From positions 1 to 34,178 of the forward strand of contig DASXUF010000019.1 of the NCBI GenBank assembly GCA_036504975.1: a stretch of 34,178 bases of DNA, given 5' to 3'. Positions 14,965-32,897 of this stretch are shown here, in pieces. The stretch's first letter is position 1; every line of letters starts with the position of its first letter. The stretch comes from Candidatus Binatia bacterium (GTDB lineage Bacteria > Desulfobacterota > Binatia > UBA9968). A program made the position numbers and the translations under genes. The notes under the pieces were generated by a model that saw only the letters and a program-made list of their open reading frames with translations, ran no database searches and was not told the DNA's origin.

Positions 14965-15930
14965 TCAGGTCAGGTGGCCAGCCTCTCGATAATAGCGCGC
15001 GGCGCCGGGATGGAGTGGAATCTTCGTCTCCCATTGCCTGGTGATTGGCTCTGTCAGTGTCGACGAGTAGGTGAGAAAAGGTATGGGCAGGAGTTGGTTG
15101 TAGGTATAGCTCACGGTGACCGAGGCTTCCTCGATGCGTTTTCTGTTCCGGTCAATGCTCTCGGCAATCGGATAGATAATGCCGTCGTCTACTTCTGTGC
15201 GGGTGATCAGGAGGTTATCGGATAGATCAACGGTCAGCAGCGGCTCTTGGATAGACGGCAGGAATCCTACCGGAACGATATTGCGCGCATAACCCTCGCG
15301 CTCCAAGCCGGCCATCACCTGCTCCTCGAGGCCGATGAAGCGAAACCCGTTGGCGGCCACGGTTTGCCAGACGCCTTCCGTCGAGGCATGCCCGATGACG
15401 ACATCCACCTCTCGGTTTCTGATCTCTTCATCGAGTGCCGTCAAGCCCACGCCCACGTGCCACCACCGGCCGCCCCAGGCTTCGATGTCCGCCAGCGAGT
15501 AGCCGTACTGCCGCAAGATCTGATTCTCATGCTCGTACAATTCATCCGCGCGGACGCCCAATCGGATCGCGCGCTTTTCCCGGCCTATCTGTCCGAGGTC
15601 CTTGACGGGGCACCAGGGAGCCAGAGCGAACAACTGCCGATCGATTCTGGGAAACCGCGCGACCGAGCGGAGATTAGTCAACGGCTTTCCCGCCCACGAA
15701 CGCTTTCCTTCGTGCGCCCAACTCGCCCGCACCGCCGGGAACACCCACCCTAAGTCCAGTTCTCCACCCGACACCCAATCCAGGCGGTTGAGGGCGGGAG
15801 CGATGATCGCAACCGGAGCAGCGTCTTGAACGCTGCGCGCGAACACCTGGGTCATCCTGTACGAACCGGCCCATCCCACTCCGATCTTGACGCCCTGGAA
15901 GACGATATTGGATGGTAACTGGGTATCCAA
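14965..15930 (-). CDS. TAXI-family (TRAP-associated) binding-protein homolog without signal peptide
   Basis: This 321-aa protein is shaped like a TAXI substrate-binding subunit. It has the N-terminal IVFQGVKIGVGWAGSYRM, the mid block RLDWVSGGELDLGWVFPAVR and a C-terminal two-lobed periplasmic-binding fold. TAXI proteins normally carry a signal peptide and feed a TRAP membrane protein. Neither is present: the frame starts at a TTG (15930) with AGGAG about 13 bases ahead, and the first residues (DTQLPSN) are not hydrophobic. No membrane component lies in the window. It may work in the cytoplasm, possibly with an enzymatic or sensing role. A longer secreted form is not possible here, because I see no in-frame signal sequence upstream. 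Confidence 0.75.
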   Translation of the reverse strand: MDTQLPSNIVFQGVKIGVGWAGSYRMTQVFARSVQDAAPVAIIAPALNRLDWVSGGELDLGWVFPAVRASWAHEGKRSWAGKPLTNLRSVARFPRIDRQLFALAPWCPVKDLGQIGREKRAIRLGVRADELYEHENQILRQYGYSLADIEAWGGRWWHVGVGLTALDEEIRNREVDVVIGHASTEGVWQTVAANGFRFIGLEEQVMAGLEREGYARNIVPVGFLPSIQEPLLTVDLSDNLLITRTEVDDGIIYPIAESIDRNRKRIEEASVTVSYTYNQLLPIPFLTYSSTLTEPITRQWETKIPLHPGAARYYREAGHLT

Positions 15931-16151
15931 AAAAGTGGCTCTCTCCTGCTTATGAAAACTCAGAACTTTCTATTGGAGAATCTCCCTAAAAACTTGTTGC
16001 GCATTCTCATCATGCCAAAGCTCATAGCAGGGCCTCCTTGGGCCTGTCAAATACCGTTCAGCGGACACTGGTCCGACACTAAAATCCGTGCCCGCTACCG
16101 AAGTTAAAAACGAATTTGACCGTAAGGCAGAAAGCTGGTAGACGCCGGACT

Positions 16152-17288
16152 ATGAGGAAACTATTTAACCCCAGTAGCTCGATGTTCTTCACCGCACTTT
16201 TAAGTTCATTACTCGCCATCAGCTCGCCTGCCCAAACCCAAGAGCAAAGCAAGGATTGGGAAAAAAAATGGCAGGCGACGATCCAGGCAGCCAAAAATGA
16301 GGGGAAGCTTGTTTACCACTCCGGGAATTCCTCCGAACCTTATTTCCAGGAATTTCAGAAAAAGTTTCCCGAGATAAAGCTCACTCAAATCTTGACGCGC
16401 GGGGGAGCAGCGGCCGAGCAACGTTTAATGGCCGAACGACGGGCCGGGGTTTACGTCGCGGACATTGTGCATCTGGGAGCGGGGTCGGGTTCCGCGTTGG
16501 CCGGCGCAGGGGCACTCGATCCTCTCGAACCCTATATGATTCTCCCCGAAGTTTTGGATCAGTCGAAATGGTTTGAAGGGAGACACTATTTCGCCGACAA
16601 GGACGGAAAGTACGTTTTCAAGTATGCCTCGAACCCCGGCGCCGACATTTCATACAATACCAAACTCGTAAATCCAGATAACATAAAATCTTATTGGGAT
16701 ATTCTCGACGCAAGATGGAAAGGAAAGATTGTGACTTACGATCCGGGCGCCCGCGGCTCGCGCCTATTCAGCTACTTCTATTATAATCCGGAGCTGGGAC
16801 CTCGTTACTTGAGGCGGCTCTTTGGTGAAATGGAGCTTACTGCCAGCCGCGACCGTCGCCAGATGACCGATTGGTTGGCTCAGGGAAAATTCGCCATAGC
16901 GCTTCGGACCGCCCCGGATGCGTCGACTTTGGATGACGCAAGGGCCCAAGGACTACCTGTGAATTGGTTTACTCCCGGACACTTTAAAGAGGCAGTGGCT
17001 ATAAGCGGCGGGCCGGCTCACGTTGCAGTGGTCAACAGGGCCCCTCATCCCAATGCAGCGAGACTCTTTATTAACTGGTTTCTGTCCCGCGAGGGCCAGC
17101 TGATGGTACAAAACATCGCTGCTAAACATGGAGACGGCGTTGACTCGCTTAGAATGGATATCCCCAAGGACATGATTCATCGAGGTTATCGCCGAGAGGA
17201 GAAAACCAAGTTTTTCGACATGGATGCACCCGCACATGCCAACGATGATCCGGTTGCAAAGCTTATCAATGAGGCGTGGAGGAGATAG
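16152..17288 (+). CDS. Extracellular solute-binding protein, orphan copy 1
   Basis: This 378-aa secreted binding protein is of the iron(III)/polyamine-like family 1 type. A signal peptide is visible (MRKLFNPSSSMFFTALLSSL, cut near AISSPAQ). Shared subfamily blocks are EGKLVYHSG, LDPLEPYMILPEVLDQSKW, SYNTKLV, SYWDILDARWKGKI, DWLAQGKFAIA, NRAPHPNAARLFINWFLSRE and LRMDIPKDM. ATG 16152 gives the signal peptide; a TTG 36 bases upstream (16116) would spoil it. The gene is divergent from the TAXI gene and followed by a bicupin 79 bases on. There is no ABC permease or ATPase anywhere in the window, so the transporter partner is elsewhere or absent. Confidence 0.88.
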   Translation: MRKLFNPSSSMFFTALLSSLLAISSPAQTQEQSKDWEKKWQATIQAAKNEGKLVYHSGNSSEPYFQEFQKKFPEIKLTQILTRGGAAAEQRLMAERRAGVYVADIVHLGAGSGSALAGAGALDPLEPYMILPEVLDQSKWFEGRHYFADKDGKYVFKYASNPGADISYNTKLVNPDNIKSYWDILDARWKGKIVTYDPGARGSRLFSYFYYNPELGPRYLRRLFGEMELTASRDRRQMTDWLAQGKFAIALRTAPDASTLDDARAQGLPVNWFTPGHFKEAVAISGGPAHVAVVNRAPHPNAARLFINWFLSREGQLMVQNIAAKHGDGVDSLRMDIPKDMIHRGYRREEKTKFFDMDAPAHANDDPVAKLINEAWRR

Positions 17289-17367
17289 GCTGGCTTGCTC
17301 ATGAGACCCGCTCTCAAGTTATTTTGTAGAAGCGGTGAGTAAGTGTGAAAAACCAAGGAGGCGCGAA

Positions 17368-18426
17368 ATGAGCGAACGCCGGATAACTCGTACCGAAACC
17401 CCGATGGAAACAGATTACGACCAAGCGGTTCGTGCCAAAGAAATCCGCAACAAGCGGATGGCAGAAGGGAAAGTAATCGTCAAGGGTAACGACTTGCCGT
17501 GGGAGCTTAACCGTCAGGGACGGATCAAGTACTTTCTAACAGATCGATCAGAAGATGTCGCGGCTCCCGGCTGGCTTGTCTTCCAACAGGAGATTCATAA
17601 GCACTCGGGCATGCACCGGCATCAAGGCGGAACTTTTATCTTCATCTTGGGCGGCAAGGGATATAGCGTGGTAAACGGCGTGCGCCACGATTGGGAGGCC
17701 GGCGATCTAGCCATTTTGCCCATGGTGCCCGGAGGCGTTGCCCATCAACACTTCAATCTCGAGCCCGGTGTTCCCGCCCTTTGGATGAGGGTGGGTTATA
17801 CCCCGCACAAGAGACTCGTTCTTGCCAACTGGATCGAGCAGCTCGAGGTCAACCCGGACTGGGCGGAGAAAAACGGATTACAGGATCGCCAAGTGGCTCC
17901 GATGGTAAACCATGCGCGTACGACAAACAACGATGACTCTCCACGCGGGAACACTCTCTTCGACGCCCTGTTGCGGCTCCGCGACGAGCAACGAGAGCAG
18001 ATGAAGCACGCTCGGATGGTCGTTCAGGGGAAATCGTTACCTTTGGAGATCAATCCGATGGGTTTGTTCCGCTGGTACGTCCATCCGCACATGAAGGATG
18101 TCGGATGTCTCGCCCAGATGATTTACGTGCACGAGATTCCGGGTGGGAGTCGTTCCGGCAAACAGCTTCATCAAGGCGGGCGCTTTCATTATGTCCTCGA
18201 GGGAAAAGGCAGCACCGTCATAGACGGGGTGCGCCATGATTGGGAAGAGAACGAAATTATCCTGCTCCCTCTCAGTTCCCATGGCGTCGTCCATCAGCAT
18301 TATAATTCAGACCCAAGTAAACCCGCCAGGTTGCTCGTGTCCGAACCCAACTTGGTCCACGTTTGGGGAGTGGACCTGGGTTCGGGGTTAGAGATGCTAG
18401 AGCCGGCCCCGGAATACCAAGGGTAG
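17368..18426 (+). CDS. Bicupin protein, type 2 (352 aa, fused form)
   Basis: Two cupin domains in tandem make up this protein. The first (about 65-135) has GMHRHQGGTFIFILGGKG, with His83 and His85, and VAHQHFN (His126, His128). The second (about 240-320) has KQLHQGGRFHYVLEGKG and VVHQHYN. Each half has the signature VRHDWEAGD or VRHDWEENE. ATG 17368 follows AAGGAGG at 17355-17361; a GTG at 17335 lies upstream of it without a ribosome site. It is flanked by two solute-binding protein genes on the same strand (gaps 79 and 65 bases), probably one operon. The same protein appears as two separate genes at 32898-33970. Likely a cytoplasmic metal-dependent oxygenase or isomerase; substrate unknown. 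Confidence 0.82.
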   Translation: MSERRITRTETPMETDYDQAVRAKEIRNKRMAEGKVIVKGNDLPWELNRQGRIKYFLTDRSEDVAAPGWLVFQQEIHKHSGMHRHQGGTFIFILGGKGYSVVNGVRHDWEAGDLAILPMVPGGVAHQHFNLEPGVPALWMRVGYTPHKRLVLANWIEQLEVNPDWAEKNGLQDRQVAPMVNHARTTNNDDSPRGNTLFDALLRLRDEQREQMKHARMVVQGKSLPLEINPMGLFRWYVHPHMKDVGCLAQMIYVHEIPGGSRSGKQLHQGGRFHYVLEGKGSTVIDGVRHDWEENEIILLPLSSHGVVHQHYNSDPSKPARLLVSEPNLVHVWGVDLGSGLEMLEPAPEYQG

Positions 18427-18491
18427 AGGTTAGATTGTCGTCGCGATCATCACGCCGTTGAGCTCCGCGTTAGCAACAGGAGGATACCAAG

Positions 18492-19610
18492 GTGCGAACA
18501 TTCAATTGGGTTCGCTTGGCGGCTGTCCTCTGCTGTGCCGTCGTGTTTCTGGCCGCGGGTCTCGCAGGCCTCTCCCAGGCTCAGGAAAAAGACTGGGACA
18601 AAGCGCTTGCTGATCTCGTTGCCGCTGCGAGGAAAGAAGGCAAAGTCGTCGTCAAAGCGCCGCCAAACCCCGACGCGCGGGTCGAGATTCCGGCAAAATT
18701 TCGCGAGCGCTTCGGTATCACGGTGGAATATCTCGCGGGCCGCAGCAGCGAGCAGGCCGAGAAGCTCCGATTAGAGCGCGCCGCCGGCTTCTACACGACG
18801 GACGTCTTGCTGGGCGGAATCCAGACCCTTTCGACGGTGCTTTACCGGGAAGGCATGCTGGATCGTCTGAAACCGATGCTCATTTGGCCGGAAGCGATCG
18901 ATCCCTCGAAATGGAAGAACGGAACGTTGCCCTTTGCCGATCCGGATGGGAGTTATGTGCTCCGCTTGTTCAGTTACGTCGACCCGCTGATTTACATCAA
19001 TACTCAGCACGTAAAACGCGAAGAATTGACATCGACGCGAGATTTACTCCACCCCAAATGGAAAGGGAAAATCGCGGTCCTCGATCCGACGGTTGCGGGA
19101 AGCGGCGGAAACACCGCGGCGCAGTTTTATCTTCAGTTCGGCGAAGGATTCGTCAAGCAATTTTATCTTCAGCAACAGCCTGCGGTAAGCCGCGACAGCC
19201 GCCAGATCGCCGACTGGCTCGCGCGTGGAACTCATCCGATAACTCCAGACGCGAGCAGCGCGGTCGAACGAATGCTCAGCGACGGTTTCCCAATTGGAGC
19301 GATTTATAGTTTGAGCGATGCGGCGGGCTCCTTGTCGGCAGGCAACGGCCACTTGGCGGTTTTTAGCCGAGCCCCGCATCCCAACGCCGCGCGCCTTTTT
19401 GTCAATTGGATGGCCTCCAGAGAAGGAGTCGGTCTCTACGCTCGCGCCCTTATGGCTCCCTCGACCCGAACCGACGTCGATGAGTCTTTCCTGGACCCGC
19501 GGAAAATCCCCCGTCCCGGAGTGAGGTACTTCGACGGCGCCGTCTGGGATTACAACGTCCAACAAAGAGAACAGGCGCAGCTCCGCGTTAAGGAACTTTT
19601 ACGGAGATAG
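18492..19610 (+). CDS. Extracellular solute-binding protein, orphan copy 2
   Basis: This secreted binding protein of 372 aa has a clear signal peptide (RLAAVLCCAVVFLAAGLAGL, then SQAQ). The start is GTG 18492 with a strong AGGAGG at 18478-18483. It shares the subfamily blocks LKPMLIWPEAIDPSKWKNGT, LLHPKWKGKIAVLDP and SRAPHPNAARLFVNWMASRE, but it is the most divergent copy. The ligand-facing middle differs (AGSGGNTAAQFYLQFGEG), and the usual LRxDIPKD end is replaced by DESFLDPRKIPRPG. It may therefore bind a different compound. It follows the bicupin by 65 bases on the same strand. Confidence 0.87.
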   Translation: MRTFNWVRLAAVLCCAVVFLAAGLAGLSQAQEKDWDKALADLVAAARKEGKVVVKAPPNPDARVEIPAKFRERFGITVEYLAGRSSEQAEKLRLERAAGFYTTDVLLGGIQTLSTVLYREGMLDRLKPMLIWPEAIDPSKWKNGTLPFADPDGSYVLRLFSYVDPLIYINTQHVKREELTSTRDLLHPKWKGKIAVLDPTVAGSGGNTAAQFYLQFGEGFVKQFYLQQQPAVSRDSRQIADWLARGTHPITPDASSAVERMLSDGFPIGAIYSLSDAAGSLSAGNGHLAVFSRAPHPNAARLFVNWMASREGVGLYARALMAPSTRTDVDESFLDPRKIPRPGVRYFDGAVWDYNVQQREQAQLRVKELLRR

Positions 19611-19639
19611 TTCTTCGAAGCAACGACAGGATATCATCG

Positions 19640-19735
19640 CAATGATCGTATGGGTCCGGCTTTTTAGCGGCCCCTCGACATATTCGAAAGCGTCCGCAGA
19701 CATAAAATGGGTATCGCAATCGATGACATGACTTG
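19640..19735 (-). pseudogene. Amidohydrolase N-terminal remnant
   Basis: On the minus strand, VIDCDTHFMSADAFEYVEGP, continuing as LKSR, is the start of an amidohydrolase-2 family protein, whose N-terminus carries the metal-binding D-x-H (DTH). The reading then becomes unrelated (THTIIAMISC) and stops. No further amidohydrolase sequence follows in any frame, so it is a decayed fragment, perhaps of an enzyme once part of this cluster. Confidence 0.65.
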
Positions 19736-20036
19736 AGCCCGCCGAACTTTTTACCACGCGCGCGAGGAAAACAATCGCACGGCGCGCCGCATGTCGGCCT
19801 TCAATCGCCGCCCGTCGGCAAGCCCCAGACCAAGTTGACACGAAAGTATCGTTATCGGATACTCTCCGCGGGCAGACGAGGCAGCTTCTCTACTACCGTG
19901 GAGATCGGCCCGGAATTCATCAAGAAGGTTTCTTCCGCCGGATGGAAACACGGCGACTCACGCGTCATTGAGCGGCCTTACCGGGAAGGATCGCGGAATT
20001 CTTAAAGAGCAAATTTTTAAAAGGAAGAGCGATTCT
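19736..20036. other. Intergenic region before the UbiD operon
   Basis: These 300 bases contain short open frames but none with family features. Residues such as TTVEIGPEFIKKVSSAGWKH at 19890-19955 look protein-like and might be another relic. The promoter of the operon starting at 20037 should lie here; I see no clear -35/-10 pair. Confidence 0.4.
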
Positions 20037-21167
20037 ATGAGACGCATAGCGCCTCTGTTTTCCATGGCCATTATCGGCTTCGTTGTCCTCTTGGCTCCCT
20101 TGGCCCATGGGGCGGAGGCGAAGGCGCCCTGGCAGGAGGAATGGGAAAAGACCGTTCAGGCCGCCAAAAAGGACGGTCAGCTCGCGATCTACGGCGTCAA
20201 CGGTTATGACGAGGTCTTCAAGGCGTTTGCCAGGACGTTCCCCGAGATCAAAGTATCTTTCCTCGGCGGGCTGGGCTCGCAGCTCGGGCCGAGGATCATG
20301 AACGAGCGCAGGGCGGAAAAGTATCTCGTCGATATCTATCTCGCGGGCATCGTCACGCCGTACACGGTCTTTCACCGCGGCAAGGCGCTCGATCCGATCC
20401 GGCCGGTGCTCGCGCTGCCGGAGGTCTTGGACGAGTCGAAGTGGTGGAGCGGCCGGCACCACTACGCGGATCCCGAGGGACAATACATCTTTGTCTTCCA
20501 GGGAAACGTCCATGGCGGGGAGACCGCCTACAACACCCAGCTCTTCGATCCCAGGGAGATCAGATCTTATTGGGACTTCTTGAATCCCAAATGGCGCGGT
20601 AAGATCGTCGCGAGAGACCCCAAGGCGGTGAGCACCGTGGCCCATAGCCTGCGATTTTTCTATAATCATCCGGAAATCGGTCCGGATTTCATCCGGCGCT
20701 TCTTCGGCGATATGGACCTGGCTCTCTCCCGCGACGAACGCCAGATGACTGACTGGCTGGGCGCGGGAAAATTCCCTCTCGCCTTCTTCATCGCCGGCGT
20801 GGAAGAGGGGGAAAAGCAGGGGTTGCCGGTCAAGATGTTCGAACCCGGTCGTTTTAAAGAGGGCGCGAGCGTGGGACCGACCCAAGGTTCGGTCTCTCTC
20901 ATCAATCGGGCGCCGCACCCCAACGCGGCGAAGGTGGCGATCAATTGGCTGCTATCGCGCGATGGGCAGACCGCCTATCAGAACGGCTTCGCCCAGACCG
21001 ACGATGTCATCGAGTCGATGAGGGAAGATATTCCCAAGGACATCATTCCCGCGCCGCATCGGCGGGTCAAAGGCGCCAAATATGTTTATTCCGGCAGGCC
21101 GGAGTGGATCGATATGGCGCCGGTGCAGAAGCTCGTGAACGAAGCGCTGGGTCAGACGCAGAAGTAA
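20037..21167 (+). CDS. Extracellular solute-binding protein, orphan copy 3 (first gene of the UbiD operon)
   Basis: This secreted binding protein of 376 aa has the signal peptide RRIAPLFSMAIIGFVVLLAP, ending LAHGAEA. Subfamily blocks are DGQLAIYGVNGYDEVFKAF, LDPIRPVLALPEVLDESKWW, AYNTQLF, SYWDFLNPKWRGKIVARDPK, DWLGAGKFPLAF, NRAPHPNAAKVAINWLLSRD and MREDIPKDII. ATG 20037 follows AAGGAAG at 20021-20027; an upstream start at 19968 would destroy the signal sequence. The UbiD gene begins 13 bases after it stops, so the protein is co-produced with the catabolic enzymes and likely binds their substrate. No permease is present. Confidence 0.9.
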   Translation: MRRIAPLFSMAIIGFVVLLAPLAHGAEAKAPWQEEWEKTVQAAKKDGQLAIYGVNGYDEVFKAFARTFPEIKVSFLGGLGSQLGPRIMNERRAEKYLVDIYLAGIVTPYTVFHRGKALDPIRPVLALPEVLDESKWWSGRHHYADPEGQYIFVFQGNVHGGETAYNTQLFDPREIRSYWDFLNPKWRGKIVARDPKAVSTVAHSLRFFYNHPEIGPDFIRRFFGDMDLALSRDERQMTDWLGAGKFPLAFFIAGVEEGEKQGLPVKMFEPGRFKEGASVGPTQGSVSLINRAPHPNAAKVAINWLLSRDGQTAYQNGFAQTDDVIESMREDIPKDIIPAPHRRVKGAKYVYSGRPEWIDMAPVQKLVNEALGQTQK

Positions 21168-21180
21168 ACCGGAGGGCTTT

Positions 21181-22635
21181 ATGCTGAGCAAGCCGAAATC
21201 GGAGACGGCGGACGTGGGATATCGGGACCTGAGAGGTTACGTCGGGCTGCTGGAGGCGGCGGGACTTCTCAGGCGGATCAAAACTCCGGTCGAGCCCAAG
21301 CATGAGCTCGGAGGGATTGCGGCAAGATCGCTGGATCGCGGCGGGCCCGCGCTCATTTTCGAGAACATCCGCGGGCACGAGGGGATGCCCTTGATTACCA
21401 ATATCCTTTCCACCACGGCGCAGCTCGCGATCGCTTTCGGCGCCGAGCCGGACGAGGATCGGATCTACGAAAAAATCGTCCACGGCATGGAAAACCGAAC
21501 GCCTTCGGTCGCGATCAAGTCCGCCGCCCCGTGCAAGGAGGAAATCCATCGCGGCGACAAAGCCGATCTCTACAAGTTTCCCACGCCGTTTTGGCATGAG
21601 CTCGACGGCGGCCAATACATCGGCACGACGGCGGGATTCATCACCATGGATCCGGACACGGGCGCTCACAATATGGGATCCTACCGCGTCATGATCAAGG
21701 ATCGAAACACGCTCGCGGCCAACGTGCGCGGCGCTCATCCCATCGGCAAGGGGCCGCGCCCGAACGATCACGGCGGCACCGCGCACATCCTGCAGAACGA
21801 GGCGCGCGGCCGGCCGACGCCGATGGCGCTGGCGCTCAGCATGGATCCGCTCCTCACCTTGGCCTCAGGAACCAGCGTCCCGCTGGACAGCCACGGGTAC
21901 GCGGAGTACGAGGCTGCGGGCGGCTGGCGCGGCAGCCCCACCGAGCTGGTCCAATGCGAGACGAGCGAATTGCTGGTGCCGGCGCGCGCGGAGATCATCG
22001 TCGAGGGAGAGGTGGTCGCCAACGCGAGAACGCCCGAGGGCCCGCACGGGGAATCGACCGGTTTCTACGGCGAAAACAAAGAATCGTTTCTGATCCGAGT
22101 GAAATGCATCACCCAAAGAAAGCATCCGCTGAGCTACGGCTTGATCTGCAGGGTATTCGAGGACTATCCGCGGACCTTGCTGAGGTCGGGATCGTTCCAA
22201 ACCCTTCTGATCCAGAAAACCGGAATGACGAATATCACCAAGGCGTATCTCCCGGAGGTTGGAAGACTGGGCATGGTGATCATCGCCGCCAGGATACGTG
22301 ACGCCGAAGAGCCCAAGCGGATCATGAAAGCGGCCTGGGAGAACGGCGGGGCGCGATGGGTGATCGTGGTCGACGACGACTGCGATGTCAGAAACTGGAA
22401 CGACGTCATGTGGAGGGTGTGCGCGGCGGCCGTTCCGGAGAAGAATGTGATCGAAGGGCCGCGGGTTGCCGGCTCGCGCCGGCGCGACGAGATCGAATTC
22501 GAGCCGCCGCCGTCGGGCCTGGGCATCGACGCCACCATGCGTTTCAAGGACAGAGGCTTTCCGCCGGTCAACCAGGTCAGCCGCGAGCTCATGGCGCGGG
22601 TGGCGAAGCGCTGGAAGGAATACGGCCTCAGTTAG
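21181..22635 (+). CDS. UbiD-family prenylated-FMN-dependent decarboxylase
   Basis: This 484-aa enzyme reversibly decarboxylates aromatic or alpha,beta-unsaturated acids using prenylated FMN. The catalytic trio is visible: Arg169 in NMGSYRVMIKD, and Glu286 and Glu291 in RTPEGPHGESTGFYG. These correspond to the Arg-Glu-Glu of fungal Fdc1. The prFMN/metal site region (TAGFITMDPDTGAHNMGSYR) and the VDDDCDVRNWNDVMW motif of UbiD relatives are intact. ATG 21181 has GGAGG at 21171-21175. The neighbours are a binding protein (13 bases ahead) and a Rieske oxygenase (12 bases behind). No UbiX-type prenyltransferase is in the window, so the cofactor must be made elsewhere. The exact acid is unknown; it is not necessarily the ubiquinone enzyme. 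Confidence 0.94.
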   Translation: MLSKPKSETADVGYRDLRGYVGLLEAAGLLRRIKTPVEPKHELGGIAARSLDRGGPALIFENIRGHEGMPLITNILSTTAQLAIAFGAEPDEDRIYEKIVHGMENRTPSVAIKSAAPCKEEIHRGDKADLYKFPTPFWHELDGGQYIGTTAGFITMDPDTGAHNMGSYRVMIKDRNTLAANVRGAHPIGKGPRPNDHGGTAHILQNEARGRPTPMALALSMDPLLTLASGTSVPLDSHGYAEYEAAGGWRGSPTELVQCETSELLVPARAEIIVEGEVVANARTPEGPHGESTGFYGENKESFLIRVKCITQRKHPLSYGLICRVFEDYPRTLLRSGSFQTLLIQKTGMTNITKAYLPEVGRLGMVIIAARIRDAEEPKRIMKAAWENGGARWVIVVDDDCDVRNWNDVMWRVCAAAVPEKNVIEGPRVAGSRRRDEIEFEPPPSGLGIDATMRFKDRGFPPVNQVSRELMARVAKRWKEYGLS

Positions 22636-22647
22636 AGAGGAGCGATC

Positions 22648-23829
22648 ATGTTGACGCAGGAGGAAAACGAGCTTTTGACGAGAGTCGGACCGGGAACGCC
22701 TTGCGGCCAGCTTCTAAGGCGCTACTGGCATCCCGTCGGATTCGTCTCGGAGTTGACCGAGGCCAAGCCGAAAAAAAGGCTGCGTATTTTGGGCGAAGAT
22801 CTGGTCTTGTTCCGCCTCCCGAGAACTCAAGGCCAAATCCGATACGGTCTCCTGGCCGAGCACTGTTCCCACCGGGCCGCTTCCCTGTACTACGGGAACG
22901 TGGAGGAGAACGGGCTCCGCTGCGCCTATCATGGATGGAAGTACGACGCGAGCGGCCGGTGTTTGGAGCAGCCCTTCGAGTCCAAAGAAACCACCACGAA
23001 AGACGAGATCCGGCACCCCGCCTATCCGGTGGAGGAGCTTGCGGGCCTGTTGTTCGCCTACATGGGGCCGCCGGAGAAAAAAACTTTGCTGCCGCGCTGG
23101 GACGTGCTCGTGCGCGAGGACGGAACGAGGGAGATCCAGATCCATCCGGTGCTCAACTGCAACTGGCTCCAGGCGCAGGAAAATACGCCGGACCTGGTGC
23201 ACGGATTTTATCTTCACGCGTATCAGTTCAAAGCGCGCCGGATGAGCGAGGGGAGATATCGCGACCGGCAGATCGAGAGCATCGAATTCGACGAGTTCGA
23301 GTGGGGCATGAAGCAGAGGCGCATCTATGCCGACCGGGGTCCCGGCGCCGTGACCGCCTATCCGATGATCTTTCCGAACATCATGCGGCTCAACGAGGCG
23401 TCGCGCGAGGTCATGCACTGGCGCGTGCCCCTGGACGATTACAACAGCCGGATTTTCTGGGCCGGCTTTACGCCTTCGCGCGGCGGAAAAAAGGTCGCGC
23501 AGCCCGAGCACCCGCCGGTGACCTACATCACGTATAAAGAAGACGGCGAATTCCTCATGACCACGTTTCCGAGCCAGGACGCGATGGCGTGGGAGACTCA
23601 GGGGCCGATCTTCGACCGGACGAAGGAAAATCTGGGCGCGTCGGATATCGGCGTCGTGAAATACCGCAAGCTGCTCAAGGAGCAGATCAGGATCGTCCAG
23701 CAGGGCGGCGACCCGATCGCCTTTGTGCGCGATCCGGAAAAAAATCGCATCGTCGAATTCACGACCTTGCAGGGAACTCCCGACGAAGGGATGCGCTGGG
23801 TCGAGCTTTTGGAAAAAAGGGTGATCTGA
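22648..23829 (+). CDS. Rieske non-heme iron oxygenase, alpha subunit (phthalate-dioxygenase type) 2
   Basis: This 393-aa oxygenase subunit has Rieske ligands Cys73/His75 (HCSHRAASL) and Cys92/His95 (CAYHGWKYD). The iron site is ENTPDLVHGFYLH, with Asp182, His185 and His190. The start TRVGPGTPCGQLLRRYWHPV and the end block FDRTKENLGASD define the phthalate 4,5-dioxygenase group. ATG 22648 has GAGAGGAG just ahead. It lies between the UbiD gene and a Gfo/Idh/MocA dehydrogenase whose start comes one base after its stop. In the known phthalate pathway a Rieske oxygenase, a dehydrogenase of that family and a decarboxylase act in sequence, so this gene probably starts a similar chain on an unknown acid. 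Confidence 0.93.
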   Translation: MLTQEENELLTRVGPGTPCGQLLRRYWHPVGFVSELTEAKPKKRLRILGEDLVLFRLPRTQGQIRYGLLAEHCSHRAASLYYGNVEENGLRCAYHGWKYDASGRCLEQPFESKETTTKDEIRHPAYPVEELAGLLFAYMGPPEKKTLLPRWDVLVREDGTREIQIHPVLNCNWLQAQENTPDLVHGFYLHAYQFKARRMSEGRYRDRQIESIEFDEFEWGMKQRRIYADRGPGAVTAYPMIFPNIMRLNEASREVMHWRVPLDDYNSRIFWAGFTPSRGGKKVAQPEHPPVTYITYKEDGEFLMTTFPSQDAMAWETQGPIFDRTKENLGASDIGVVKYRKLLKEQIRIVQQGGDPIAFVRDPEKNRIVEFTTLQGTPDEGMRWVELLEKRVI

Positions 23830-23830
23830 G

Positions 23831-25003
23831 ATGCCGAATCTCAGGATGGGGATAGCCGGCCTGGGCATGGCCTCGCGCCAGATCCTGCCTTACTTCGAAA
23901 AAATTCCTTACATCCAGGCTGCCGCGGCGGCGGATATCCGAAAAGAGAGCTTGAAGGCTTTTCAGGAGAAGTATGCCGGCAAGGTATTCGAGAGCGTCAA
24001 AGAGATGTGCGAGAGCCCGGACATCGACGCCGTCTGGATCGCGACTCCTAATCTGCACCATGCGGACCATGCCATCATGGCTGCCGAGAACGGCAAGCAC
24101 ATCATCTGTGAAAAACCGCTGGCCGTGACTCTGGAAGAGTGCGACCGGATGATCGAGGCGGCGGAGCGGAACAAGGTCAAGCTCCTGCAAGGCCATTCGA
24201 AGATCTACGAGCCGGCGATAAAGAAAATGCGCGAGATCGTCGCCGGCGGCGAGCTGGGGCGGCTGCTGCAAATCAACACCTTCAATTATCGCAACTGGAT
24301 TCTCCGCCCGAGAGTCGACGTTGAAGTCGATACCGCTCGCGGCGGCGGCATCGTCTATAACCAGGGGCCGCACCAGACCGACGTGGTCCGCTGCATCGGG
24401 GGCGGCGTGGTCAAGAGCGTGCGCGCCAACGCGGGCAGATGGGATTCCCACTTCGATTGCGAGATCGGCTACACGGCGTTTCTGGAGCTTGCCGACGGAA
24501 CGCCGGCGACGATGACGATCAACGGCTACGGCTACTTCGATATCACCGAGCTGACCTGGGACATCGGCGAAGGCGGGACGAAAGTTACGCGGTCACCCTC
24601 AAAGCTCGCGCGCCACAAAGGCCCGGTCGATCCGGCAACGAAATATTCGGGTCCGGTGCATTGGGGCGCGAGCGATTCCTCCGACGGCGAGAGATACCAG
24701 CCCTTCTACGGCCTCACGATCGTGAGCTGCGAGAAGGGAGATATCCGCCAATCTCCGGATGGGCTCTATGTCTACACGATCGAGGGAGTGAGAGAGGTGC
24801 CCTGCCCTCCCAGTCGCGGGCGTGGGGCGGAGCTGATCGAACTACACGAAGCGATCACCCAGGACAGGCCTGTTTTCCCCGATGGAAAATGGGGCAAGGC
24901 GAGTCTCGAGGTGGTTCTCGCCATCCTCAAGTCTTCCAGAGAGAAGAAAGAAATCACGCTTTCGCACCAAGTCTCTTATCCTTCTCGACTCGAAGAGTCT
25001 TGA
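23831..25003 (+). CDS. Gfo/Idh/MocA-family NAD(P)-dependent dehydrogenase
   Basis: This 390-aa oxidoreductase has an N-terminal Rossmann fold (GIAGLGMASRQILP), the EKP motif at residues 94-96 with the catalytic Lys95 (CEKPLAVT), and the later substrate-site His181 and Asp184 (NQGPHQTDVVRCIGG). The family includes the cis-dihydrodiol dehydrogenase of the phthalate pathway (Pht4), which acts after a Rieske dioxygenase. That role fits here, since the gene starts one base after the Rieske stop codon. There is no distinct ribosome site ahead, so translational coupling is likely. A sugar or inositol dehydrogenase cannot be excluded from sequence alone. Confidence 0.9.
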   Translation: MPNLRMGIAGLGMASRQILPYFEKIPYIQAAAAADIRKESLKAFQEKYAGKVFESVKEMCESPDIDAVWIATPNLHHADHAIMAAENGKHIICEKPLAVTLEECDRMIEAAERNKVKLLQGHSKIYEPAIKKMREIVAGGELGRLLQINTFNYRNWILRPRVDVEVDTARGGGIVYNQGPHQTDVVRCIGGGVVKSVRANAGRWDSHFDCEIGYTAFLELADGTPATMTINGYGYFDITELTWDIGEGGTKVTRSPSKLARHKGPVDPATKYSGPVHWGASDSSDGERYQPFYGLTIVSCEKGDIRQSPDGLYVYTIEGVREVPCPPSRGRGAELIELHEAITQDRPVFPDGKWGKASLEVVLAILKSSREKKEITLSHQVSYPSRLEES

Positions 25004-25056
25004 CGTCGTATAGAGTTCTTTATACGATTCTCTAAAGTCAATTCAGGAGGTGAACC

Positions 25057-26157
25057 ATGTTGACCTGTCTTTCCCACGGCGGGAGAAGCGTTTACCGTTC
25101 CAACGTTCCATCCAACGATCTTCTGGTTGCGACCACCGACGGTGTCGCTTGCATAAGCCGCCCGGAGGCGAAGGCTGCCTGGCGGGTGAGCCGTCGGACG
25201 CTTGAGGGGAAACACATCAGTTGCCTCCTGATCGAGCCGCGCCGGGGAATTCTATTTGCCGGGAGTCACGGCGCCGGAATCTACGCCAGCGAAGACCAGG
25301 GCCAAACCTGGACGCGCAAAGATCGCGGCGTCGAGTTTCCCGATGTCTATTCAATGAACTTTGTCGAGAGCGGCGGGGAGCTTCGGCTCTACGCCGGAAC
25401 CGAGCCGGCGCATCTGTTTATCAGCAGGGATATGGGCGAAAACTGGCAGGAGATCCCTTCGGTCAGATCGGTGCCGAGCGTGGAGAAATGGACCTTCCCG
25501 GGGCCGCCGCACATTGCGCATGTGAAAAACATCACCTTCGACCCGCGGTCGGCGGAAACGATCTACTTGAGCATCGAAGTGGGCGGCGCGCTCAAGAGCC
25601 TCGACGGGGGCAAGACCTGGCGCGAGCTGAGCGGCTTCTACGAGGATGTCCATCGCATCGTCATCCCGTCCCAACGGCCGGAAAAACTTTACATCACGGG
25701 CGGCGACGGGATCTATCACAGCCGGGACGGCGGCGAGAGCTGGGAGCATCTCACCGACCGCTCTCATCGCATCGCCTATCCGGACGCGCTCATCCCGCAT
25801 CCCGACAATGAGCTGCTGATGTTCACCTCCGGGGCGATCAGCAGCCCGGGCACGTGGCGCAAAACCCAAACGGCCGACTCGCGCGTCGCCCGGAGCCGCG
25901 ACGGCGGCAGGAGCTGGCAGGTTCTCGAACGGGGACTGCCGGAACACATCCGCGGGAACATCGAGGCGATGAGCATGAACGTTTGGCCCGAGGGGTTTAG
26001 CCTCTTCGCCGGTACGACCGACGGCCGGATATTTTTCAGCGACGACGAGGGCGAGAGCTGGTCCACGATCGCGCAGGGACTGCCGCCCGTTTCGAAAGCC
26101 GGCCACTACAGAAATCTGCCGAAAGCCGACGCGGCCGAATCCGCCGCCGCGGGGTAA
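25057..26157 (+). CDS. Asp-box (BNR-type) beta-propeller protein, cytoplasmic
   Basis: This 366-aa protein is built of repeated beta-propeller blades. I count six Asp boxes (S-x-D-x-G-x-x-W): SEDQGQTW (78-85), SRDMGENW (123-130), SLDGGKTW (181-188), SRDGGESW (222-229), SRDGGRSW (280-287) and SDDEGESW (328-335). It begins MLTCLSHGGRSVYRSN without a signal peptide, so it should stay in the cytoplasm, unlike secreted sialidases, and it lacks a visible sialidase active site. ATG 25057 has a strong AGGAGGTGA at 25045-25053. It is the last gene of the UbiD-Rieske-dehydrogenase operon (gap 53 bases). It could be a scaffold, sensor or lactonase-like enzyme; the function is unknown. Confidence 0.85.
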   Translation: MLTCLSHGGRSVYRSNVPSNDLLVATTDGVACISRPEAKAAWRVSRRTLEGKHISCLLIEPRRGILFAGSHGAGIYASEDQGQTWTRKDRGVEFPDVYSMNFVESGGELRLYAGTEPAHLFISRDMGENWQEIPSVRSVPSVEKWTFPGPPHIAHVKNITFDPRSAETIYLSIEVGGALKSLDGGKTWRELSGFYEDVHRIVIPSQRPEKLYITGGDGIYHSRDGGESWEHLTDRSHRIAYPDALIPHPDNELLMFTSGAISSPGTWRKTQTADSRVARSRDGGRSWQVLERGLPEHIRGNIEAMSMNVWPEGFSLFAGTTDGRIFFSDDEGESWSTIAQGLPPVSKAGHYRNLPKADAAESAAAG

Positions 26158-26204: not shown

Positions 26205-27353
26205 TCACGGCTTGGCGCCGAGCGCCTCGCGAAACACCTTGCGGACTGGTTCCATATCCATCATGTCGGGACTGTCCAGCTCCACGTAATTACCCCCGTC
26301 AATCCTCCGCTCTCCGGGAGGTATGTAGTCTTTAGGGATGTCGATGCGAAGAGAATCCCGAGCGCTGTCCGCTTTCGCTTGCTCTTGCTGAAAGGCTATC
26401 TGCCCCTCGCGCGAGAGGAACCAATTGATGAAAACTTTGGCTGCATGCGGGTGCGGTGCTTTGTTGACCAATCCTATATAACCTACTTGACCCGAAATCC
26501 CGGCGCCTTCTTTCAATAATTTGTTCCAGTCGTCCACCGGGAGCCCCTGGCGTTTCGCGGTTTCGACTCCCGGGCAAAAAAAGCAGATGGCAAACTTTCC
26601 GCTGCCGAGCCAATCGATCGCCTGACGCGAATCCCGGAACAGAGTGACGTCCATCTCGCCGAAAAGCCGCCGGATGAACGGCGAGCCGAGCTCCGGATTG
26701 TAATAAAAGAACCTCATGGGGCTGCTGCCGCCGCCGGCCTCGGCGATGTCCCTCGCGGCGATTTTTCCCTTCCACTTGGGCTGGAGAAAATCCCAGTAGG
26801 ATTTGAACTCCTTCGGGGCCATCTGCGTGGTGTTGTAGCCGATCGTACCGTAGTTGGGCGAGCCGGCGAACGCGATCACAGACTGTCGTTCAGCGTCGAG
26901 GTATTTCAACTTGCCGTGCCACCATTTGGACTCGTCGGTGACTTCCGGCAGGATCAAAGCGGCTTTGATCGGATCGAGCGCCTTGGCTTTAAACATATTG
27001 GGGTGAAAGTTGGAGGCGCCGTCGATGAAGACATCCGCGATGAACTTGTCGCCGCGCCGCTCCGATAAAATTCTCTGCTGGAGCTGGCCCCCCTGGCCGC
27101 TGACAACGACAAGCTTGATCTGGGGAAACTTTTTTTGAAACGCGCCTCCATCCAGCACGTAAGGCGGTCCCCAATAATAAACGTTCAGCTGTCCCTCTTT
27201 CAGAGCGGCGTCGACGGTCTTGGACCACTCCGCCTGCCACGCGGCTTCGGCGGACAAAACGATTTTCGCCGGCTGAATTAAGAGAAACAAAGAAGTGAAG
27301 AAAAGGACGCTCTTGCGAAACGCCCGACGCCCTTTTTTTCTTGCTGCCTTCAT
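26205..27353 (-). CDS. Extracellular solute-binding protein, orphan copy 4
   Basis: This secreted binding protein of 382 aa has a signal peptide (AFRKSVLFFTSLFLLIQPAK, ending VLSAEA). Shared blocks are EGQLNVYYWGPPYVLDGGAF, IKAALILPEVTDESKWWHGK, GYNTTQM, SYWDFLQPKWKGKIAARD, DWLGSGKFAICFFCPGVET, NKAPHPHAAKVFINWFLSRE and LRIDIPKDYI. ATG 27353 has AGGAG seven bases ahead. It is the last gene of the minus-strand operon, after a HIBADH-type dehydrogenase. Its front part closely resembles the broken copy at 29457-30214 (WG, LDEGVFQ/LDGGAFQ, VSGAGGQL/VSGQGGQL), so the two are recent paralogs at either end of one operon. Confidence 0.9.
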   Translation of the reverse strand: MKAARKKGRRAFRKSVLFFTSLFLLIQPAKIVLSAEAAWQAEWSKTVDAALKEGQLNVYYWGPPYVLDGGAFQKKFPQIKLVVVSGQGGQLQQRILSERRGDKFIADVFIDGASNFHPNMFKAKALDPIKAALILPEVTDESKWWHGKLKYLDAERQSVIAFAGSPNYGTIGYNTTQMAPKEFKSYWDFLQPKWKGKIAARDIAEAGGGSSPMRFFYYNPELGSPFIRRLFGEMDVTLFRDSRQAIDWLGSGKFAICFFCPGVETAKRQGLPVDDWNKLLKEGAGISGQVGYIGLVNKAPHPHAAKVFINWFLSREGQIAFQQEQAKADSARDSLRIDIPKDYIPPGERRIDGGNYVELDSPDMMDMEPVRKVFREALGAKP

Positions 27354-27372
27354 GTTTTTCTCCTGCGCTTTC

Positions 27373-27388
27373 GGCGCCCGCGGGCGCC
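27373..27388. promoter_or_regulatory. Perfect 16-bp palindrome between operon genes
   Basis: GGCGCCCGCGGGCGCC lies in the 52-base gap between the dehydrogenase and the following binding-protein gene. It is a strong G+C hairpin without a T-run. It may protect or shape the messenger; it could also be chance. Confidence 0.4.
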
Positions 27389-27405
27389 GGCGATCGATTG
27401 GATTG

Positions 27406-28233
27406 TCAGCCGTTGCTAATTTTTCCCTCGAAGATCCGAGCGAGGAGCTGTTGCGCCAGCGCGAGGCCGGGAACGGGAAGCCCCAGCTCGTGAGCCATCT
27501 CGACGGCGGGACATACGCCCTTGAAAAAAAGCTCTACCATGTGGGGATCCTTGCCGGTCTTATCGCTGAACTTGAGCCAGTTGTCGGCCATGCGGCTCTG
27601 TCCCGCGCTCACGCGCACGAGCTCTTGAAAAACCTCCGGATCGATCCCCGCTTTTTGCGCCAGCGACATGCCCTCGTAGGCCGAGAGGATATTGACGACG
27701 ACCATCGTCTGCTGGGCGAGCTTGGCCGTGGCCCCGGTTCCGACCGCGCCCATATGAAAGATGTGTTTTCCCGACGCCTCGAGCACGGGGCGGCATTTTT
27801 CGAAGAGGGGGCTTTCCCCTCCCACCATAAAACAGAGCGTCTTGTCTTTGGCGCCGGCGGAGCCGCCGCTCATCTGCGCATCGACGAGGCCGATGCCCTT
27901 CGCCTTGAGGATATCGGCCAGCTTGCGCACCGTTCGAGGATGAATCGTGCTGTGGACGGCGATGACCGTGCCGGGTTTGGCGCTGCTCATGAGCCCGCCG
28001 TCTCCCAACGTCACCTCCTCCACTTGTTCGTCGTCCACGACCGCCAATCCGATTACCTCCCCATGCTTCCCCACATCGGCCGCGGAGCCGGCCGTCTTCG
28101 CGCCGGTCGCCGCAAGCTCTTTCATCGGCTGCTCGCGCCGGTCGTACACCATGAGGTCGAAGCCCGCCTGAGCGATATTCGTCGCCAGCGGCTTTCCCAT
28201 GTTGCCAAGTCCGATAAAACCAACCTTAGTCAT
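27406..28233 (-). CDS. 3-hydroxyisobutyrate-dehydrogenase-type NAD(P) oxidoreductase
   Basis: This 275-aa beta-hydroxyacid dehydrogenase has the NAD(P)-binding start VGFIGLGNMGKPLATNI at residues 4-20. The substrate-site block DAQMSGGSAGAKDKTL is at 119-133 and the catalytic Lys171 lies in GATAKLAQQTMVV. ATG 28233 with AGGAG five bases ahead gives the normal family N-terminus; an upstream start at 28323 would add 30 unrelated residues running back over the Rieske gene. It probably oxidises a 3-hydroxy acid or reduces a semialdehyde. It sits between a Rieske oxygenase (47 bases upstream) and a binding protein (52 bases downstream) on the same strand. Confidence 0.92.
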   Translation of the reverse strand: MTKVGFIGLGNMGKPLATNIAQAGFDLMVYDRREQPMKELAATGAKTAGSAADVGKHGEVIGLAVVDDEQVEEVTLGDGGLMSSAKPGTVIAVHSTIHPRTVRKLADILKAKGIGLVDAQMSGGSAGAKDKTLCFMVGGESPLFEKCRPVLEASGKHIFHMGAVGTGATAKLAQQTMVVVNILSAYEGMSLAQKAGIDPEVFQELVRVSAGQSRMADNWLKFSDKTGKDPHMVELFFKGVCPAVEMAHELGLPVPGLALAQQLLARIFEGKISNG

Positions 28234-28280
28234 TAGCGGCTCCTTGAGGTGTTGCAAGCCGAACCCGACGGACGCGGTCT

Positions 28281-29444
28281 TCAGCGTTCGGTCTCTACCA
28301 ACGGCTTCTCCGGGCTCTTCCATTGCTTGAGGCCGCGCCCCTCGGCCAGCGCGCGGAGCTCTCTCTGCCAGATTTTTCTCAAGAGAATCGGCCCCACGTC
28401 GATACGGCCCAGCCGTTCATCGGATCTGTCGGCGATGGTCCCCTGGCCGACCTGGACGACGTAGTCTTCGATCCAGAAAAAATAGTACGGGCTCGCGTCC
28501 TTATCGACGTCCTTGAGCCGCATCTTTCCTTTTAAGATCGCCGCGGCGGTTTCGTTGGGCGAGGCCGCCATCGAAGACCTTAGATCGACGCGCCGCGCTT
28601 CGAAATCCCTGGCGGCGTCTCCCGTCAGGGGCAGCCAACTCACGACGTAGCTCACGCAATGCTCGTCATCGATGGGCACGCGCCAGAACAGCCGGTGGGC
28701 GCGGAGGTTCGCCGCGTTTTGCGCGCCGGTCTCGACGCGGCCGCTGGGCGGCGCCTGATTGATGTTGGGCATGTGGAAGTGAAAGTAATCCGTCGGCCCC
28801 TCCGTCCTCACGACGGCCGTCCTGATGCCGTACTCCGTCTCCTCGGCCGCAAGGGTCGGCACCGTGAAATACTTCGGGCTGCCGGCGCGGCGCTGGAGCG
28901 ATTCTCGATGGGTAAAAGTCACGTGGCCCACGTCGCAGGCGTTGTCGATGCGGTTAAAGTAATTGCACGGCCACACCTCGGGCGGGCCGACCGATATCAG
29001 ACCGGGCTTTTCGAACTCGGGGAATCGCCTGAGCGGCGGCGGCTCGCCCTCGCCCAAATAAACAAAGATGAGCCCCAGATGCTCCCGGGCGGGATAACTT
29101 TTTATCCCGACTTTGGCAGTGAAGGACTCCTCTTCCCCCGGCTGCTCGATGCACCGCCCGCAGCCGTCGTACTTCCAACCATGATAACGACAGCGGATGT
29201 CGTCGCCCTCCACCCAACCGGTGGAAAGCTGCGCGCCGCGATGGGCGCAGCGAAAAGCTACCACGTAGGGCGTTCCGCTCTCTCCCCGATAGAGCGTGAA
29301 GTTCTCGCTCATGAGCCTCACCGGCAGCGCCTGTCCGGGCTTGAGATCGCCGCCGACGCAAACCGGCTGCCAGAACTTTCTCAAGTAGCGGCCGGCGATG
29401 GTCCCCGGCCCCGTGTGAACGAAGTCCATCTCTTCCTGGCTCAT
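28281..29444 (-). CDS. Rieske non-heme iron oxygenase, alpha subunit 3
   Basis: This 387-aa oxygenase subunit has Rieske ligands Cys66/His68 (CAHRGAQL) and Cys85/His88 (CRYHGWKYD). The iron site is NACDVGHVTFTH, with Asp171, His174 and His179. It differs from copies 1 and 2 in the start (HTGPGTIAGRYLRKFWQPVC) and lacks their EHLGASD tail block, ending instead with SDERLGRIDVGPILLRKIWQ. It thus belongs to another branch of the phthalate-dioxygenase-like group. ATG 29444 follows ACGAGG. It is preceded by a broken binding-protein gene (12 bases) and followed by the dehydrogenase, so it is the first intact gene of the minus-strand operon. No reductase gene is present. Confidence 0.92.
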   Translation of the reverse strand: MSQEEMDFVHTGPGTIAGRYLRKFWQPVCVGGDLKPGQALPVRLMSENFTLYRGESGTPYVVAFRCAHRGAQLSTGWVEGDDIRCRYHGWKYDGCGRCIEQPGEEESFTAKVGIKSYPAREHLGLIFVYLGEGEPPPLRRFPEFEKPGLISVGPPEVWPCNYFNRIDNACDVGHVTFTHRESLQRRAGSPKYFTVPTLAAEETEYGIRTAVVRTEGPTDYFHFHMPNINQAPPSGRVETGAQNAANLRAHRLFWRVPIDDEHCVSYVVSWLPLTGDAARDFEARRVDLRSSMAASPNETAAAILKGKMRLKDVDKDASPYYFFWIEDYVVQVGQGTIADRSDERLGRIDVGPILLRKIWQRELRALAEGRGLKQWKSPEKPLVETER

Positions 29445-32719: not shown

Positions 32720-32897
32720 AGCGAGCGCTCCCGTCCTTATCTTGTCCAGCGAAGATTTCAAGCGTGCCCATATATAAAAGCCTTCGATGGACTGTGTCAA
32801 TAAGCGCCGCCGTGCTTTACCAGCAACGGCTTGACGGTTTTCTCCTGCTTCGCTAGGTTGAGGAGAATGTTCAGTTACTACGGAAGGAAGGTCAGCT

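What the first reader, a model, noticed from the sequence alone, without database searches (positions are those of the whole stretch)
20037..26157. Compact UbiD-Rieske-Gfo/Idh-propeller operon led by an orphan binding protein
Five genes lie on one strand with gaps of 13, 12, 1 and 53 bases. The known phthalate pathway uses a Rieske dioxygenase, a Gfo/Idh/MocA-type dihydrodiol dehydrogenase and a decarboxylase. Here the decarboxylase is a prFMN-dependent UbiD enzyme instead, joined by a cytoplasmic Asp-box propeller with no known role in such pathways and by a secreted binding protein. The gene set suggests an undescribed oxidation and decarboxylation route for an aromatic or unsaturated acid. 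The enzyme families are seen directly; the pathway is inferred.
Basis: partly seen in the sequence, partly recalled or inferred. Interest (0 to 1): 0.75.

Follow-up and report, generated by a model that had tools for sequence, protein, structure and literature searches.

The report
UbiD swapped into phthalate-type operon
In a bacterium known from a metagenome-type genome, genes for a phthalate-type oxygenase and dehydrogenase sit directly beside a UbiD decarboxylase gene, a trio that recurs in related genomes and that would likely break down a still unknown aromatic acid by an oxygen-using route for which no description was found.

Summary
In detail: five genes on the + strand, gaps 13, 12, 1 and 53 bases, encode a secreted binding protein, UbiD, a Rieske oxygenase, a Gfo/Idh dehydrogenase and an Asp-box propeller. 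The phthalate analogy is right by descent: Rieske and Gfo are nearest, among solved structures, to phthalate dioxygenase and 4,5-dihydroxyphthalate dehydrogenase. The trio recurs: of 42 such Gfo loci in 16 genomes (own included), 25 have a Rieske and 14 a UbiD gene within 5 kb, and all 14 (from 7 genomes) have both. In the window's nearest Rieske relative and two nearest Gfo relatives the slot holds a PhtC-like decarboxylase. The UbiD tree implies repeated recruitment. Two parts fail: the propeller is not a partner (near a Gfo in 1 of 48 cases, the window), and the five-gene order was seen in none of the 120 other stretches. The Rieske lacks two of three phthalate anchors (the third is unclear), so phthalate is an unlikely substrate. 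The order is remarkable: 36 of 36 genomes carry 16 to at least 43 UbiD genes, 0 of 23 from the rest of the class. Substrate and activity are untested.

The parts
19835..19863 (+). sigma-70-like promoter match, TTGACA-17-GATACT
   Evidence: 10 of 12 matches; 4 promoter-like sites found against 2.1 expected in the scanned stretch; consensus match only
20037..21167 (+). secreted periplasmic solute-binding protein (iron-type SBP group) without a neighbouring permease
   Evidence: PF13343 23.8 bits, cut-off 24.6; best solved relatives are Fe(3+) binding proteins, E 3e-5; signal-like N-terminus by eye
21181..22635 (+). UbiD-family (prFMN-type) decarboxylase, predicted decarboxylation step
   Evidence: PF01977 E 1.8e-51 with UbiD_N and UbiD_C; Glu-Arg-Glu residues present; AlphaFold model pLDDT 82.2 matches E. 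coli UbiD first
22648..23829 (+). Rieske non-haem iron oxygenase, phthalate-dioxygenase group
   Evidence: PF00355 + PF19301; nearest solved 7fjl/7v25/7v28 and 7fhr; cluster and iron ligands intact
23831..25003 (+). Gfo/Idh/MocA dehydrogenase, 4,5-dihydroxyphthalate (cis-dihydrodiol) dehydrogenase group
   Evidence: profile search: 7wzd E 1e-121, 3moi 2e-121, next family 2e-32
25057..26157 (+). Asp-box (BNR) beta-propeller, probably not part of the pathway

Best explanation
This operon likely encodes the opening steps of an aerobic aromatic-acid breakdown route in which a phthalate-type Rieske oxygenase would make a cis-dihydrodiol, the adjoining Pht4-type dehydrogenase would rearomatise it to a catechol carboxylate, and the UbiD enzyme would remove a carboxyl group, the step done by Pht5 or PhtC in known phthalate operons. 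Shown: the gene order, the family of each enzyme, intact catalytic residues, one UbiX gene for the cofactor in the genome, and the recurrence of the Rieske-Gfo-UbiD trio, often with a cupin gene and a binding protein, in related genomes. Inferred: the order of reactions, the aromatic acid as substrate, uptake through the secreted binding protein with a permease encoded elsewhere, and electron supply from an unlinked reductase. The propeller is probably a bystander or a separately transcribed gene.
For: Descent: Rieske to phthalate dioxygenases, Gfo to 4,5-dihydroxyphthalate dehydrogenase far above other Gfo families; Gfo proteins 91 and 90% identical are named phthalate 4,5-cis-dihydrodiol dehydrogenase by JGI (P0241, P0242). 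Recurrence: 14 of 42 Gfo loci have UbiD within 5 kb, 13 on the same strand; all 14 have a Rieske gene too and 12 a cupin; Rieske near Gfo has UbiD in 20 of 33 cases, Rieske without Gfo in 1 of 40. With 43 UbiD genes spread evenly over 5.08 Mb about 10% of loci would have one by chance, so 14 of 42 has p 4e-5 (loci are not independent). Slot-filling: the nearest Rieske relative stands in a set of Gfo fragment (at a contig edge), binding protein, Rieske, cupin, PhtC-like, and the two nearest Gfo relatives stand with Rieske and PhtC-like genes; PhtC-like by NF053537, 87 bits, cut-off 200. Pht5 stands near 4 of 42 Gfo loci (one member matches 9jp7, E 3e-49). Aromatic context: LigB-type dioxygenase near 7 and a meta-cleavage-type hydrolase near 5 of 42 (families, hydrolase models below cut-off; counts). 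UbiX present.
Against: The exact operon is unique among the loci read; its UbiD clade (five rows, starred) has no other member near Rieske or Gfo, although the two nearest lie on short contigs (4.6 and 8.2 kb), so neighbours may be cut off. The 14 UbiD-linked Gfo loci come from 7 of 16 genomes. The window's Gfo branch is long and its sister relation has SH-aLRT 89, not 95. Of the four nearest Gfo rows one (L139) has no decarboxylase, and the second and third nearest Rieske rows have LigB but no PhtC-like gene within 5 kb. The Rieske lost the Ser182 and Arg244 equivalents (G186, T236) and the Arg207 region is an insert that cannot be aligned, so the substrate is not phthalate by this test. 17 of 42 Gfo loci have neither Rieske nor UbiD near. 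No reductase, ferredoxin or identified ring-cleavage gene is among the five genes. No activity data exist.
Confidence: 0.55

Rival explanations
1. UbiD likely acts first: it decarboxylates an aromatic or heteroaromatic acid, and the Rieske and Gfo then oxidise the decarboxylated ring.
For: Among the nearest solved UbiD relatives is phenazine-1-carboxylate decarboxylase of Mycobacterium (7pda, 29% identity), an enzyme that removes the carboxyl from an unoxidised ring; the Rieske has lost carboxylate anchors, as one would expect of a substrate with fewer carboxyl groups; UbiD stands before the Rieske gene.
Against: In the nearest Rieske and the two nearest Gfo relatives the third gene is PhtC-like, a catechol-carboxylate decarboxylase type; gene order varies among trios.
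Confidence: 0.2
2. The Rieske enzyme is an O-demethylase or monooxygenase of the LigXa kind acting on lignin-derived methoxylated acids, and the Gfo protein has another role.
For: LigXa_C domain; LigB dioxygenase and meta-cleavage-type hydrolase genes accompany some related trios, the set used for 5,5'-dehydrodivanillate (recalled).
Against: Phthalate dioxygenases are the nearest solved structures; the frequent partner is a Pht4-type dehydrogenase that acts on a cis-dihydrodiol in its known member (PMC13040137, passages).
Confidence: 0.15
3. The genes are a chance gathering inside a catabolic island of a genome full of UbiD, Rieske and binding-protein genes, with no shared pathway.
For: G000 has at least 43 UbiD genes and 47 Rieske domains; the window alone holds three Rieske genes and six binding proteins; each gene's nearest relatives lie in different neighbourhoods.
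Against: Spacing of 1 to 13 bases in the first four genes; UbiD is enriched near Rieske-Gfo pairs compared with Rieske genes without Gfo.
Confidence: 0.1

Closest known systems
pht operon for aerobic ortho-phthalate (Pht3 oxygenase, Pht4 dihydrodiol dehydrogenase, Pht5 decarboxylase), e.g. Marinibacterium pLA6_006
   Same: Rieske and Gfo components are of the same groups and play the likely same two steps
   Different: decarboxylase is UbiD instead of the binding-protein-like Pht5 (fold recalled); no reductase among the five genes; two phthalate anchors of the Rieske changed
3,4-dihydroxyphthalate route with PhtC (class II aldolase-type decarboxylase), and a Peribacillus plasmid set Rieske - class II aldolase - Gfo - oxidoreductase - ferredoxin - dioxygenase
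   Same: Rieske, Gfo and a decarboxylase-type gene side by side; the window's nearest Rieske and two nearest Gfo relatives have such a set
   Different: UbiD stands in place of the aldolase-type decarboxylase
Anaerobic phthaloyl-CoA / isophthaloyl-CoA decarboxylase (UbiD) pathways (review PMC13040137, passages)
   Same: UbiD with UbiX-made cofactor in breakdown of an aromatic diacid
   Different: those use CoA esters and no oxygenase; no CoA ligase or transferase among 28 window ORFs scanned by Pfam, and the window's UbiD is least like that enzyme among the solved UbiDs listed (E 3e-13 and 2e-12)
Phenazine-1-carboxylic acid decarboxylase, Mycobacterium fortuitum (7pda), E. coli UbiD, HmfF, vanillate decarboxylase ShVdcCD, AroY
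   Same: same fold and family, 20-29% identity
   Different: none is known to me in a Rieske-Gfo operon (recalled); substrates differ
3b7f, BNR-repeat 'putative glycosyl hydrolase' of Ralstonia eutropha
   Different: no function is given for either

Membership tests
Phthalate 4,5-dioxygenase (PDO) | Rieske cluster and 2-His-1-carboxylate iron site | tested here: met
   C73/H75/C92/H95 and D182/H185/H190/D311 present and invariant in all 14 aligned rows, window included
Phthalate 4,5-dioxygenase (PDO) | nearest solved structure is PDO | tested here: met
   7fhr 3e-99, 7fjl (with 7v25, the PDO entry named in PMC10511449) 5e-97, 9ina 5e-91, next 8e-30
Phthalate 4,5-dioxygenase (PDO) | phthalate anchors Ser182, Arg207, Arg244 (PMC10511449, PMC12445078, passages) | tested here: not met
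   Ser182 -> G186, Arg244 -> T236; Arg207 falls in an insert, inconclusive
Phthalate cis-dihydrodiol dehydrogenase (Pht4) | nearest solved relative by profile | tested here: met
   7wzd 1e-121 and 3moi 2e-121 against 2e-32 for the next; phmmer alone ranks 3moi first
Phthalate cis-dihydrodiol dehydrogenase (Pht4) | oxidises a carboxylated cis-dihydrodiol | not testable with these tools
   needs enzyme assay
UbiD prFMN decarboxylases | three UbiD domains and Glu-Arg-Glu/Asp network | tested here: met
   network described in PMC5818171 (passages); the residue mapping is by alignment
UbiD prFMN decarboxylases | UbiX flavin prenyltransferase available in the genome | tested here: met
   one TIGR00421 match over cut-off in G000:C198
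Pht5/PhtC-type aerobic phthalate operon | Pht5 or PhtC decarboxylase in the operon | tested here: not met
   UbiD is the only decarboxylase family found among the five genes
Anaerobic UbiD phthaloyl-CoA pathway | CoA ligase or CoA transferase nearby | tested here: not met
   none among 28 window ORFs scanned with Pfam, of 51 ORFs of 150 aa or more
Complete ABC importer | permease and ATPase beside the binding protein | tested here: not met
   none in the 28 scanned window ORFs; relatives such as L141, L146, L171 do have the permease

The most novel reading that the evidence does not exclude
A whole order of Candidatus Binatia runs oxygen-dependent aromatic-acid catabolism in which UbiD enzymes have repeatedly replaced Pht5 and PhtC as the decarboxylase of Rieske-Gfo modules, giving dozens of parallel routes for different aromatic acids built from a shared kit of UbiD, Rieske, Gfo, cupin and orphan binding protein.
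Probability: 0.4. Interest if true: 0.78.

Novelty: new variant of a known kind. Interest (0 to 1): 0.58.

Why it matters
If true, prFMN chemistry, which the passages I saw of the 2026 phthalate review name only for oxygen-free CoA-ester routes (PMC13040137), also serves an oxygenase-first route, and a lineage whose phylum is called yet-uncultured (title of PMC8262859) carries tens of unassigned UbiD enzymes, some tied by gene neighbours to a likely substrate class. UbiD enzymes act reversibly (PMC7976604, passages), so a large natural set with pathway context would be useful to those who look for carboxylases.

Tried and rejected

Limits of the counts: neighbourhoods cover 42 of 47 listed Gfo hits and 16 of 18 genomes, own included; the five others (one each in G029 and G011, two in G021, one in G017) were not fetched. 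The 120 stretches come from 25 genomes of the order and were chosen by UbiD, Gfo, Rieske or propeller hits, so rates are not those of random loci; 20 of the 120 were chosen for UbiD and enter the Rieske count. Related genomes are not independent. Many contigs end within 5 kb. UbiD tree: 59 rows from 61 profile hits, Rieske tree: 72 from 76, after dropping short or duplicate ones; the Rieske tree used a simpler model and gave long-branch warnings. UbiD counts per genome are capped at 43 scored.
Full report
What is there. Pfam names them solute-binding protein (just below the cut-off), UbiD, Rieske with a LigXa_C domain, Gfo/Idh/MocA and BNR propeller. No NCBIfam model reaches its cut-off for any of the five. 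A promoter-like site with 10 of 12 matches precedes the first gene at 19835-19863 and a weaker one lies just before the propeller at 25000-25028.

Which kinds of enzymes. By sequence the Rieske protein is nearest to phthalate dioxygenase structures; a 14-member profile puts 7fhr, 7fjl and 9ina at E 3e-99 to 5e-91 and the next family at 8e-30. The Gfo protein is nearest to 3moi and 4,5-dihydroxyphthalate dehydrogenase 7wzd; with a profile both reach E 1e-121 to 2e-121 and everything else is at 2e-32 or worse. UbiD resembles E. coli UbiD, a phenazine carboxylate decarboxylase (7pda), HmfF and vanillate decarboxylase at 20-29% identity. The residues that I align with the Glu-Arg-Glu network of Fdc1 (PMC5818171, passages) are R169, E286 and E291 and are invariant in all 30 aligned rows, window included. 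The genome has one UbiX match over the cut-off.

A test that fails. Phthalate dioxygenase holds phthalate with Ser182, Arg207 and Arg244 (PMC10511449 and PMC12445078, passages). In the profile alignment Arg244 falls on T236 of the window's protein and Ser182 on G186; Arg207 lies in an insert. Of five Rieske proteins from UbiD-linked Gfo loci in the alignment, four (L141, L149, L156, L159) keep an arginine at the 244 position and one (L161) does not. So the window's enzyme is in the phthalate dioxygenase group but is probably not a phthalate dioxygenase.

Does the set recur. I fetched 120 stretches from 25 genomes of the order, own included, around UbiD, Gfo, Rieske and propeller hits and labelled genes with profiles built from the window's genes and from clusters of neighbours. 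Around 42 Gfo genes in 16 genomes, within 5 kb, lie: a Rieske gene in 25, a binding protein in 29, a cupin in 16, UbiD in 14 (13 same strand), the ABC permease in 10, LigB dioxygenase in 7, a meta-cleavage-type hydrolase in 5, PhtC-like in 4, Pht5 in 4, the propeller in 1. The 14 loci with UbiD come from 7 genomes and all have a Rieske gene (Fisher p 1e-4). Rieske genes near a Gfo have UbiD in 20 of 33 cases, those without Gfo in 1 of 40 (p 2e-8). 17 of the 42 have neither. Typical orders are cupin-UbiD-binding protein-Rieske-Gfo-binding protein-cupin-permease (L145, L146) and cupin-UbiD-Rieske-Gfo (L149, L152). The window's own genome has four Gfo loci of nine with UbiD within 5 kb.

Which decarboxylase fills the slot. 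Among 25 Gfo loci with a Rieske gene, 14 have UbiD (two of these also Pht5, one also PhtC-like), two PhtC-like alone, one Pht5 alone and eight none of the three. The Pht5 label rests on 9jp7, E 3e-49 over the whole length of one member; the PhtC-like label on NF053537 at 87 bits, under its cut-off of 200. The window's Gfo groups with two Gfo genes that sit with Rieske and PhtC-like genes (SH-aLRT 89, long branch), and its nearest Rieske relative is in a set of Gfo fragment, binding protein, Rieske, cupin and PhtC-like; the next Rieske relatives have no PhtC-like gene within 5 kb. Its UbiD belongs to a starred clade of five with no other member near Gfo or Rieske, two of them on short contigs. 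The state 'in a trio' (16 of 59 UbiD rows) needs at least five changes on the UbiD tree. The simplest reading is that UbiD genes from different clades were recruited to Rieske-Gfo modules several times, and that the window is one such separate event.

The host. A 90% identical Gfo protein is from Candidatus Binatia. Every one of 36 genomes of the order has UbiD genes, from 16 to 43 or more (the tool scored at most 43; G009 has 125 candidates), against none at E 1e-15 in 23 genomes of the rest of the class. The published survey of the Binatota has no occurrence of words that begin with UbiD, Rieske, aromatic, phthalate or decarboxylase in its main text (PMC8262859, word counts and passages). 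Paper searches listed no paper that I recognised as dealing with UbiD in an oxygenase-first phthalate-type route or with this expansion; apart from the papers named here I saw listings only, and most subscription papers are not held. The 2026 review on phthalates names UbiD only for anaerobic CoA-ester pathways in the passages I saw (PMC13040137).

Verdict. Enzyme activity, substrate, uptake and electron supply are inferred.

Noticed in passing
whole genome G000 and order: UbiD expansion: 36 of 36 genomes of the order have 16 to at least 43 UbiD genes, 0 of 23 from the rest of the class, while UbiX reaches its cut-off in 34 of 36 genomes, once in each.
   Followed up: partly
whole genome G000: 47 Rieske domains, 38 of them in frames of 365 aa or more, but only one FAD_binding_6 match, a weak one: no clear phthalate-dioxygenase-reductase type partner, so a shared ferredoxin/reductase of another kind may serve them.
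   Followed up: partly
window 14965-21167, 26205-27353, 31631-32911: Six binding-protein genes with no ABC permease among the 28 scanned window ORFs; related loci place such binding proteins near a 577-aa permease protein.
   Followed up: partly
window 26205-29444, - strand: Binding protein, 3-hydroxyisobutyrate-type dehydrogenase and a second Rieske gene converge on the operon; a Rieske-dehydrogenase-binding protein set stands directly before Rieske-Gfo in L171 (G017:C10).
   Followed up: partly
propeller family, residues 116, 155, 199, 303, 350 of window 25057-26157: Invariant His and Glu residues in all 34 aligned rows suggest a ligand or metal site in a family that sources name only as glycosyl hydrolase, photosystem II factor-like or hypothetical.
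   Followed up: no
G059 (genome of L001, Defluviicoccus sp. isolate RHO1_bin_59): 16 UbiD matches at E 1e-40 in a genome reached through another tool, which also has the closest propeller of the 80 named loci (45% identity).
   Followed up: no
L186 (Peribacillus plasmid pA): Rieske, class II aldolase, Gfo (43% identity), oxidoreductase, ferredoxin and dioxygenase in a row, with a UbiD gene about 6.4 kb downstream of the Gfo.
   Followed up: no
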